DNA from: Jannaschia faecimaris
Lineage (GTDB): Bacteria; Pseudomonadota; Alphaproteobacteria; Rhodobacterales; Rhodobacteraceae
NCBI RefSeq assembly: GCF_900107415.1
Contig: NZ_FNPX01000002.1
Location: 124,001-188,000, forward strand
Direction of reading: 5' to 3'
DNA length: 64,000 bases
A program made the translations under genes and the position numbers. The notes under the pieces were generated by a model that did no database searches, was not told the origin of the DNA, and saw nothing but the letters and a program-made list of their open reading frames with translations. Positions 30,248-62,472 of the stretch are shown here, piece after piece (position 1 is the stretch's first letter; every line of letters begins with the position of its first letter).

Positions 30248-30369
30248 TTCCGCACCCCATCCTTGCCAAACGTTGCACGGGCGGGGCGACGTCCCCGCCG
30301 ATGTCGTAACCGGGCGGCAACCCGGCGGAATCGCGCTTGACCGCTGCGACATCCGGGCGCATCAAAGTG

Positions 30370-30575
30370 GCGCAAGGTTCCTCCGGCTCAAAGCACAAAC
30401 GGGGGACGAAATGGGAATGCGGTGAGGGGGACCCAAACAGGGACCCGATGCCGCAGCCGCCCCCGCGACTGTAAGCGGTGAGCGCGGTGCCAACAGCCAC
30501 TGGATCCGACATGCGGACCCGGGAAGGCGGCACCAAGCCACGACCCGCGAGCCAGGAGACCAGCCCTGCACCGCC
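30370..30575 (+). ncRNA. Cobalamin (B12) riboswitch
   Basis: Class I cobalamin riboswitch core elements appear in order: GGGAATGCGGTG (30413-30424), CCGCCCCCGCGACTGTAAGC (around 30457-30476), CCACTGG...CGGGAAGGC (around 30497-30529) and GAGCCAGGAGACC (30549-30561, the B12 box). It precedes hupE, with 117 bases between the end of the core and the start codon. Binding of adenosylcobalamin would be expected to switch off hupE and perhaps cobW. Boundaries are approximate because no folding was done. Confidence 0.9.
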
Positions 30576-30659
30576 ATCATGGCGGACCGATGCAACGGAC
30601 GGGGTGTTCCGTGACCGGGTGAGCCAGGTGCCGCCGCGCACATGCCTTCCCCGCCACAG

Positions 30660-62240: not shown

Positions 62241-62309
62241 AGGGTCTTGACCCACACAAAATCTGTGCCAACCTCCTACCTGTGAAACCCATTGAAAGGA
62301 GGTGATCCA

Positions 62310-62366
62310 GTGTCAAGAAAGATAGTGGAGAAGATGGTCGGGACAACTTCGGGGATTCGCGTCTAG
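62310..62366 (+). CDS. 18-residue ORF with extended Shine-Dalgarno
   Basis: GTG 62310 to TAG 62366 codes MSRKIVEKMVGTTSGIRV. The upstream AAAGGAGGTGATCC (62295-62308) is complementary to the entire 3' tail of 16S rRNA (GGATCACCTCCTTT), with optimal seven-base spacing from GGAGG. No other gene in the window has such a complete match. It may be a leader peptide whose translation reports on ribosome supply, or a small functional peptide. Confidence 0.5.
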   Translation: MSRKIVEKMVGTTSGIRV

Positions 62367-62435
62367 GGCAGCCCTTAAACGTTTGAAACCGTTGAGGTTG
62401 ATGCGTCTAACCGACCACACCTCCTGATACTTTCG

Positions 62436-62472
62436 GAAGGCCGCCCTCTGTATTTGGGGGCGGCCTTCTTTG
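62436..62472 (+). terminator. Intrinsic terminator before arfB
   Basis: GAAGGCCGCCC (62436-62446) pairs perfectly with GGGCGGCCTTC (62458-62468) over an 11-base loop and is followed by TTTG. It ends the leader element 88 bases before the arfB start, so arfB is either attenuated or has its own promoter. Confidence 0.7.

What the first reader, a model, noticed from the sequence alone, without database searches (positions are those of the whole stretch)
62271..62472. Shine-Dalgarno flanked by two perfect anti-Shine-Dalgarno segments around an 18-codon ORF upstream of arfB
Seen: AGGAGGTG (62297-62304) can pair with ACCTCCT 19 bases upstream (7 bp) or with CACCTCCT 113 bases downstream (8 bp). The two pairings are mutually exclusive. 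The downstream pairing is directly continued by a 7-bp helix 62335-62341/62411-62417, and an 11-bp terminator closes the element. The ORF's ribosome site matches the whole 16S tail. Inference: a self-contained RNA switch that senses ribosome availability or initiation, placed before a ribosome-rescue factor. It could also act in trans as an anti-SD small RNA.
Basis: partly seen in the sequence, partly recalled or inferred. Interest (0 to 1): 0.75.

Follow-up and report, generated by a model that had tools for sequence, protein, structure and literature searches.

The report
Self-closing ribosome-binding small RNA
The stretch looks like a small stand-alone RNA gene, related to a bacterial RNA family of unknown function, that carries an unusually complete landing site for the ribosome in front of an 18-codon frame and is predicted to fold shut over that site once fully made; the frame, but not the peptide, is conserved, which points to a role for the act of translation itself.

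Summary
The Shine-Dalgarno site (SD), downstream anti-SD, continuing helix, 18-codon ORF and terminator are real and conserved. The upstream anti-SD is not part of the RNA: it overlaps a predicted promoter -10 and is complete in only 2 of 37 loci, the window included. The element is a divergent relative of Rfam RF01867 (CC2171 sRNA): 43.2 bits, cut-off 75. The same 5' block followed by a start codon occurs in 80 of 161 genomes of the class and 1 of 236 other Pseudomonadota, nearly always once. GAAAGGAGGTGATCCA complements the whole 16S tail. A start codon follows in 63 of 64 matches. In 37 of 37 Rhodobacterales-type loci the stop is at codon 19 (TAG, TGA or TAA), yet codon positions 1 and 2 diverge at least as much as 3, unlike neighbouring arfB. 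Translation looks selected, the peptide does not. The segment before the terminator is predicted to close the SD in 34 of 36 such loci, late in transcription; in two other lineage groups it pairs with the early ORF. arfB follows in 29 of 37 Rhodobacterales-type loci but almost never elsewhere, so arfB control is unlikely to be the basic function. Best reading: a translated, self-closing small RNA that captures 30S subunits; output unknown.

The parts
62247..62274 (+). Predicted promoter: -35 TTGACC 62247-62252, 16-nt spacer, -10 CAACCT 62269-62274; expected start of the RNA about 62281.
   Evidence: TTGAC at the matching place in 33 of 37 Rhodobacterales-type loci; CANNCT-like -10 seen by eye. 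Inference; the generic sigma-70 scan found none.
62294..62309 (+). GAAAGGAGGTGATCCA: 16-nt complement of the alphaproteobacterial 16S 3' tail, including the SD AGGAGG 62297-62302
   Evidence: 16S tail in public plasmid-borne rRNA; duplex -29.6 kcal/mol; 29 of 30 Rfam-model loci keep >=14 of 15 pairs, G-U allowed
62310..62366 (+). 18-codon ORF, GTG start, TAG stop
   Evidence: start codon in 63 of 64 matches; stop at codon 19 in 37 of 37; no amino-acid-level conservation
62306..62329 (+). Predicted start-codon hairpin: UCCA 62306-62309 with UGGA 62326-62329, UGUC 62311-62314 with GAUA 62321-62324
   Evidence: 98.0% of cells paired in 37 loci, one-sided changes only
62335..62341 (+). 5' arm of inner long-range helix (inside the ORF)
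   Evidence: Two-sided changes in L013 and L019
62411..62417 (+). 3' arm of inner long-range helix
62418..62425 (+). Downstream anti-SD CACCTCCT, predicted to pair with 62297-62304
   Evidence: SD paired to the pre-terminator segment above 0.5 in 34 of 36 loci; one-sided G-U changes only, no two-sided covariation
62435..62469 (+). Intrinsic terminator hairpin
   Evidence: 10 of 12 aligned pairs have changes on both sides in 37 loci

Best explanation
A stand-alone, translated small RNA (about 62281-62472), distantly related to the CC2171 family, that works by capturing 30S subunits. SHOWN by comparison: wide conservation of the complete 16S-tail complement and of the start codon, and in Rhodobacterales-type loci of the stop position and of a long-range fold, without conservation of the peptide. 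PREDICTED by folding: while the RNA is being made the SD is mostly unpaired (the start codon already sits in a small hairpin); when the segment just before the terminator emerges it pairs with the SD and the RNA closes. The 16S tail covers both locked strands (the SD, and the UCC of the start hairpin), so a ribosome that arrives early could hold the RNA open, and the freed anti-SD then has an alternative partner in the ORF (GGAG, codons 6-7). INFERRED: the RNA is translated in a short window during or just after transcription; ribosome capture and transit over 18 codons are what is selected; the captured and closed states differ in stability or partners. The output is not known.
For: Start left free in the pattern: 63 of 64 matches in 387 genomes carry ATG, GTG or TTG; no control match in the rows listed. 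Stop at codon 19 in 37 of 37 loci: TAG 17, TGA 16, TAA 4, no TGG (Fisher p 6e-7, not corrected for relatedness). Divergence by codon position 0.33/0.35/0.29 in the ORF against 0.24/0.17/0.45 in arfB of the same 29 loci. SD paired to the pre-terminator segment in 34 of 36, and more than with that segment shuffled in 36 of 36. In the window's nascent RNA SD pairing is 0.07-0.14 from 62345 to 62405 and 0.97 at 62425; opening SD to start costs 11.4 kcal/mol, the 16S duplex gives -29.6. Two-sided changes in the inner helix in L013 and L019. Block plus start: 80 of 161 genomes of the class, 1 of 236 other Pseudomonadota (my count of rows). A Mesorhizobium huakuii candidate matched to RF01867 was detected by sequencing as 215 nt (PMC5596092, section 5 read).
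Against: No expression or ribosome data for this element. The SD helix shows one-sided changes only, its 5' side never varies. In other lineage groups the SD is not closed by that segment, so the lock is not the family's common mechanism. L064 and L083 lack a predicted lock above 0.5. Schrader et al. 2014 (PMC4117421, passages read) say of Caulobacter ncRNAs that most lie between genes and that profiling showed these regions untranslated; whether the Caulobacter relative was among them I did not see. Folding is nearest-neighbour prediction without proteins.
Confidence: 0.42

Rival explanations
1. 30S decoy: the RNA ties up free 30S subunits or shields the 16S tail, the ORF and stop being there only to release the ribosome; the fold limits how long each copy acts.
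For: 16 nt of complementarity exceeds the core SD (AGGAGG alone -9.2, full -29.6 kcal/mol) and is widely kept; in the family scan 23 of the 28 one-mismatch places carry the same A to G change, which would keep a G-U pair with the 16S.
Against: Nearly always one copy per genome (82 places in 81 genomes); an effect needs a very abundant RNA and abundance is unknown. The Rhodobacterales lock would work against it.
Confidence: 0.15
2. Trans-acting anti-SD small RNA: the CCTCC segment, freed when a ribosome holds the SD, blocks SD sites of other mRNAs.
For: CCTCC or CTCC is kept before the terminator in the Rhodobacterales-type alignment and is predicted to lose its SD partner when the SD is occupied.
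Against: No conserved CCTCC there in the two other groups aligned; with the SD occupied it is predicted to re-pair with the ORF; no targets tested.
Confidence: 0.12
3. Leader or cis-regulator of arfB through read-through of the terminator.
For: arfB downstream on the same strand in 29 of 37 Rhodobacterales-type loci; downstream gene on the same strand in 33 of 36.
Against: Terminator kept with two-sided changes; in 4 of the 29 arfB lies 740-1135 nt away and in 8 of 37 it was not found in the fetched flank (one of these, L125, with only 239 nt); arfB in only 2 of 144 other loci; the upstream yhhQ-like gene is equally syntenic (37 of 37), as expected from conserved gene order.
Confidence: 0.08
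4. Small mRNA for a functional peptide, or a type I toxin whose SD is closed by the 3' end, as in aapA of Helicobacter.
For: Conserved start, stop and length; fold-back of a distal anti-SD onto the SD as described for aapA3 (PMC6733600, passages read).
Against: No amino-acid-level conservation; peptide not hydrophobic (mean GRAVY -0.09, range -0.69 to 1.07); peptides look unrelated between groups beyond the initial Met-Ser. An antisense RNA was not looked for.
Confidence: 0.1

Closest known systems
Rfam RF01867, CC2171 sRNA (Caulobacter)
   Same: Aligned end to end (model 1-159), same 5' block GAAAGGAGGUGAUCCAGUGUC, terminator at the same end
   Different: 43.2 bits against a curated cut-off of 75; the outer helix takes the SD here, codons 2-5 in the MSHC group; Rfam types it as sRNA, and no ORF or function was mentioned in what I saw
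aapA type I toxin mRNAs of Helicobacter pylori (PMC6733600, passages read)
   Same: A distal anti-SD closes the SD of a short ORF when transcription is complete
   Different: No conserved or hydrophobic peptide here; SD predicted mostly unpaired in the nascent RNA, where aapA3 is held shut by transient hairpins; the SD here is a complete 16S complement; no antitoxin known
Extended Shine-Dalgarno sites of Staphylococcus aureus (PMC13009471, passages read)
   Same: SD pairing continued beyond the core motif towards the start codon
   Different: There two additional pairs in the structure shown, and a property of many mRNAs; here complementarity to the whole 16S tail, on one small RNA
CCUCC-bearing sRNAs of alphaproteobacteria: BbsR14 of Bartonella (PMC7717549, passages read); CcsR of Rhodobacter (recalled, no call)
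   Same: Carries a CCTCC anti-SD segment
   Different: BbsR14 is described with two stem-loops of TTCCTCCTAA; here the anti-SD is predicted to pair with the RNA's own SD

Membership tests
RF01867 CC2171 | Score above Rfam's gathering threshold (75 bits) | tested here: not met
   43.2 bits, E 9.3e-8
RF01867 CC2171 | Full-length alignment with the conserved 5' block and a 3' terminator hairpin | tested here: met
   Model positions 1-159; GAAAGGAGGUGAUCCAGUGUC identical
RF01867 CC2171 | Helix between early ORF (UCAUUGUC) and pre-terminator segment (GACAAUGG) | tested here: not met
   Those sequences are absent in the window; its pre-terminator segment is predicted to pair with the SD
Leader/attenuator of arfB | Constant downstream gene | tested here: not met
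   29 of 37 Rhodobacterales-type loci, 2 of 144 others, one of these upstream and opposite
Peptide-coding small mRNA | Amino-acid-level purifying selection | tested here: not met
   Divergence 0.33/0.35/0.29 by codon position against 0.24/0.17/0.45 in arfB, 29 loci
Type I toxin mRNA | Short hydrophobic toxin | tested here: not met
   Mean GRAVY -0.09 over 37 peptides
Type I toxin mRNA | Anti-SD closes the SD in the full-length RNA | tested here: met
   Predicted above 0.5 in 34 of 36; not probed
Type I toxin mRNA | Antisense antitoxin RNA | not tested
   No transcript data
Anti-SD trans-acting sRNA | Pairs with SD sites of target mRNAs in the cell | not testable with these tools
   Needs RNA-RNA interaction data

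The most novel reading that the evidence does not exclude
A class-wide alphaproteobacterial RNA that gauges free 30S subunits: it offers the complete complement of the 16S tail, is translated for translation's sake over a short peptide-independent frame, and its 3' end resets the initiation region when transcription ends, shutting the SD in Rhodobacterales and opening the start codon in three other lineage groups.
Probability: 0.3. Interest if true: 0.85.

Novelty: new variant of a known kind. Interest (0 to 1): 0.6.

Why it matters
Relatives of an sRNA family that Rfam lists without, as far as I saw, a function turn out by comparison to carry the complete complement of the 16S tail and a conserved start codon, and in Rhodobacterales-type loci a conserved stop, with no conserved peptide. 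This is in a class where many genes lack an SD (75.4% of start sites in Caulobacter, PMC4117421, passages read). It makes a question testable: does a bacterium use translation of a tiny frame on a stand-alone RNA as a readout of ribosome supply? The change of pairing partner between groups is also a natural experiment in how an RNA switch is rewired.

Tried and rejected
Upstream anti-SD as an RNA arm: rejected, in the predicted promoter and not conserved; yet a fold that includes it uses it, so this depends on the true 5' end, which was not measured.

First neighbour tally (86 opposite, 67 same of 153) was dropped: its ORF caller picked antisense frames in GC-rich DNA (for example across arfB in L007). 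One search, with codon-position GC, replaced it; it too is a heuristic (7 of its Rhodobacterales-type upstream calls still look antisense to yhhQ).

Peptide function and toxin: rejected on codon positions and hydropathy. Column counts for the SD helix (84.5% paired) understate it because a subgroup is misaligned by about one base; folds each sequence by itself. Pair 57-157 of the inner helix is unpaired in 28 of 37 and is not part of the consensus. That SD closing is general was rejected: in MSHC, MSS and Sphingo the start is more open than in shuffles (0.38/0.63, 0.38/0.53, 0.45/0.57) and the SD slightly so (0.55/0.68, 0.62/0.67, 0.65/0.67); the mixed 'other' group shows neither (SD 0.69/0.69, start 0.70/0.63). 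(4 sequences with rough ends) was replaced.

Groups (Rhodo, Sphingo, MSHC, MSS, other) were made from peptide patterns, not taxonomy. Of the 37 Rhodo loci 36 fit a pattern blind to length and one (L019) came in by length 18; the 37 include the window itself (L008). L005, of the window's family, fell into Sphingo, as did L128, L177 and L180 with ORFs of 56-59 codons. Loci without AGGAGGTGA, a start codon plus TC, or a stop within 300 nt were dropped. L125 was too short to fold (36 of 37 folded). In the alignment I set the end of L067 by hand, since the terminator finder took a later hairpin. Most of the 181 loci were fetched by an exact match to the 5' block, so its conservation among them is no evidence; searches are less biased, though the Rfam model contains the block.

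Literature: searches (listings and starts of abstracts; passages or one section of seven papers opened) showed no description of an ORF or of 16S complementarity in this RNA. Subscription papers are mostly not held; the original Caulobacter report (Landt 2008, recalled) was not seen.

Full report
WHAT IS THERE. The listed sequences are at the stated places. The RNA most likely starts near 62281: TTGACC 62247-62252 and CAACCT 62269-62274 with a 16-nt spacer lie where TTGAC is found in 33 of 37 Rhodobacterales-type loci, and in three of four lineage groups TTG[ACT] peaks 50-53 bases before the SD; in the Sphingo group it is not enriched. ACCTCCT 62271-62277 would then be promoter DNA. It is complete in 2 of 37 loci, the window included. 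The generic promoter scan finds nothing, so the start remains an inference.

THE 16S COMPLEMENT. GAAAGGAGGTGATCCA (62294-62309) is the reverse complement of UGGAUCACCUCCUUUC, the 16S tail. The tail was checked in public plasmid-borne rRNA: 535 records match the 58-base query, 204 at 99% or better; the 25 listed were all identical to it and, by their names, alphaproteobacterial. The window's own 16S was not seen: the 15-mer has one exact match in its genome, this element, and 0 of 12 same-genus genomes gave the 16S end, so rRNA is missing or withheld there. In 120 genera of the family (one genome each) 84 have AAGGAGGTGATCCNRTGTC with at most one mismatch, none in the reversed control. Of 85 places 57 are exact, and 23 of the other 28 carry the same A to G change, which would keep a G-U pair with the 16S (my count; these loci were not read further). 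Of 30 loci found by the Rfam model, 29 keep at least 14 of 15 pairs with G-U allowed; the thirtieth (L027) was missed because its locus is cut short, and it carries the block.

DISTRIBUTION. RF01867 at E <= 0.001: 61 of 289 genomes of the class, 9 of 289 over the curated cut-off; of 14 named control genomes one, Caulobacter vibrioides. AAGGAGGTGATCCNRTG: 81 of 397 Pseudomonadota genomes, 82 places; by my count of the rows 80 of 161 of the window's class and 1 of 236 others.

TRANSLATED, BUT NOT FOR THE PEPTIDE. With the start codon left free (AAAGGAGGTGATCCNNNNTC), 64 matches in 387 genomes: 59 ATG or GTG, 4 TTG, one neither (G381); no control match in the rows listed. In the 37 Rhodobacterales-type loci the ORF is always 18 codons (one of the 37 was grouped by that length); the stop is TAG 17, TGA 16, TAA 4, never TGG (Fisher p 6e-7 without correction for relatedness). 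Divergence at codon positions 1, 2, 3 is 0.33, 0.34, 0.29 (36 distinct Rhodobacterales-type sequences) and 0.38, 0.40, 0.29 (29 of the Sphingo group). In arfB from 29 of the same loci it is 0.24, 0.17, 0.45. RNA pairing limits the third position in places, but codons 12-18 give 0.44, 0.54, 0.32. Start and stop look selected, the amino acids do not.

FOLD. From 62281 the RNA folds at -83.3 kcal/mol, z -5.96. With 21 more bases upstream the SD pairs with the upstream CCTCC instead, so the 5' end matters. In all groups the RNAs fold better than shuffles: 45 of 47, 39 of 40, 17 of 17, 36 of 37, 36 of 36. In 37 aligned loci the stated structure has 92.8% of cells paired against 39-56% when slid, and 13 of 37 pairs with two-sided changes against a shuffle mean of 6.4; 10 of the 13 are in the terminator, 2 in the inner helix, 1 in a short hairpin after the stop. 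Inner helix: L013 has GTC to ATC with CCGAC to CCGAT; L019 has GTC to AAC with CCGAC to CCGTC, which restores one pair and leaves one broken. Start-codon hairpin 98% paired, one-sided changes only. SD helix: one-sided changes only. Folding each sequence alone, the SD pairs with the pre-terminator segment above 0.5 in 34 of 36 loci (not L064, L083), and mean SD pairing is 0.97 against 0.65 in shuffles, 36 of 36 higher.

TIMING. In the window's nascent RNA the SD is paired at 0.41 at length 62325, 0.07-0.14 from 62345 to 62405, 0.40-0.57 from 62410 to 62421, and 0.97 at 62425. The start codon is paired at about 0.66 from 62345 on, so only the SD, not the start, is freed in the nascent RNA. Over 36 loci mean SD pairing goes from 0.40 to 0.96, the start staying at 0.82. 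Shuffling only the last 30 nt before the terminator halves the rise (0.56 against 0.27; 36 of 36 above their mean). With SD and start held open the anti-SD turns to GGAG in codons 6-7. Opening costs 11.4 kcal/mol; pairing with the 16S tail yields -29.6 as naked RNA.

OTHER GROUPS DIFFER. The pre-terminator segment pairs with codons 2-5 in the MSHC group (23 of 48 loci aligned; two pairs of this helix with two-sided changes) and with codons 3-6 in the Sphingo group (23 of 39; no two-sided change in this helix). There its arrival is predicted to open the start codon: -0.34 against +0.02 in shuffles, 36 of 42 (MSHC); -0.16 against -0.02, 30 of 39 (MSS); -0.14 against -0.01, 28 of 33 (Sphingo); in the mixed rest -0.03 against +0.03, 9 of 15. 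So the SD lock looks like a Rhodobacterales rewiring of a shared long-range helix. This speaks against one common mechanism of SD closing, and for a common theme of timing at the initiation region.

NEIGHBOURS. In Rhodobacterales-type loci a yhhQ-like transporter gene (named from sequence, recalled) lies upstream in 37 of 37 and arfB downstream in 29 of 37. Outside this group the downstream gene is on the same strand in 62 and opposite in 74 of 136. The largest downstream cluster there has 12 members, all in the Sphingo group; one of 4 members is shared by the MSHC and MSS groups. The element looks like its own transcription unit, and arfB adjacency is most simply conserved gene order.

EXPRESSION AND PRINT. 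A Mesorhizobium huakuii candidate matched to RF01867 was detected by sequencing as 215 nt (PMC5596092, section 5). Rfam 15 lists one additional covarying pair for RF01867 (PMC11701678, one passage). The searches showed no paper that describes the ORF or the 16S match.

VERDICT. A real, conserved small RNA gene whose frame is kept and whose peptide is not; most likely self-closing and ribosome-captured. What the RNA does to the rest of the cell is open.

Noticed in passing
62255-62267: CACAAAATCTGTG, an inverted repeat between the predicted -35 and -10. CACANNATCTGTG is found upstream in 11 of 37 Rhodobacterales-type loci and 0 of the other 144; a looser form in 12 of 37 (not counted in the others). 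Possibly a regulator's site.
   Followed up: partly
30358-30582: Cobalamin riboswitch (RF00174, 109.9 bits).
   Followed up: no
L128 (Azospirillum), L177, L180 (unnamed): The same complete 16S complement precedes a 56-59-codon ORF that begins like a signal peptide; a different gene or a converted element.
   Followed up: no
L097, L107, L111, L115, L133, L153, L158: In these loci (the first five titled Bradyrhizobium) the ORF is only 14 codons and ends KRCHLAGIAR; in L153 and L158 its CTCGCTGG is matched by CCAGCGAG before the terminator.
   Followed up: no
L050 and 11 further Sphingo-group loci: A gene that looks like a branched-chain aminotransferase (named from memory of the sequence) follows on the same strand in 12 loci of this group.
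   Followed up: no
window's genome and same-genus genomes: No 16S 3' end was found in any of 12 genomes, so rRNA seems missing or withheld in this collection.
   Followed up: partly
181 loci, 2-20 bases upstream of the SD: A [ACT]AAC motif is present upstream of the SD in 162 of 181 loci; perhaps near the transcription start.
   Followed up: no
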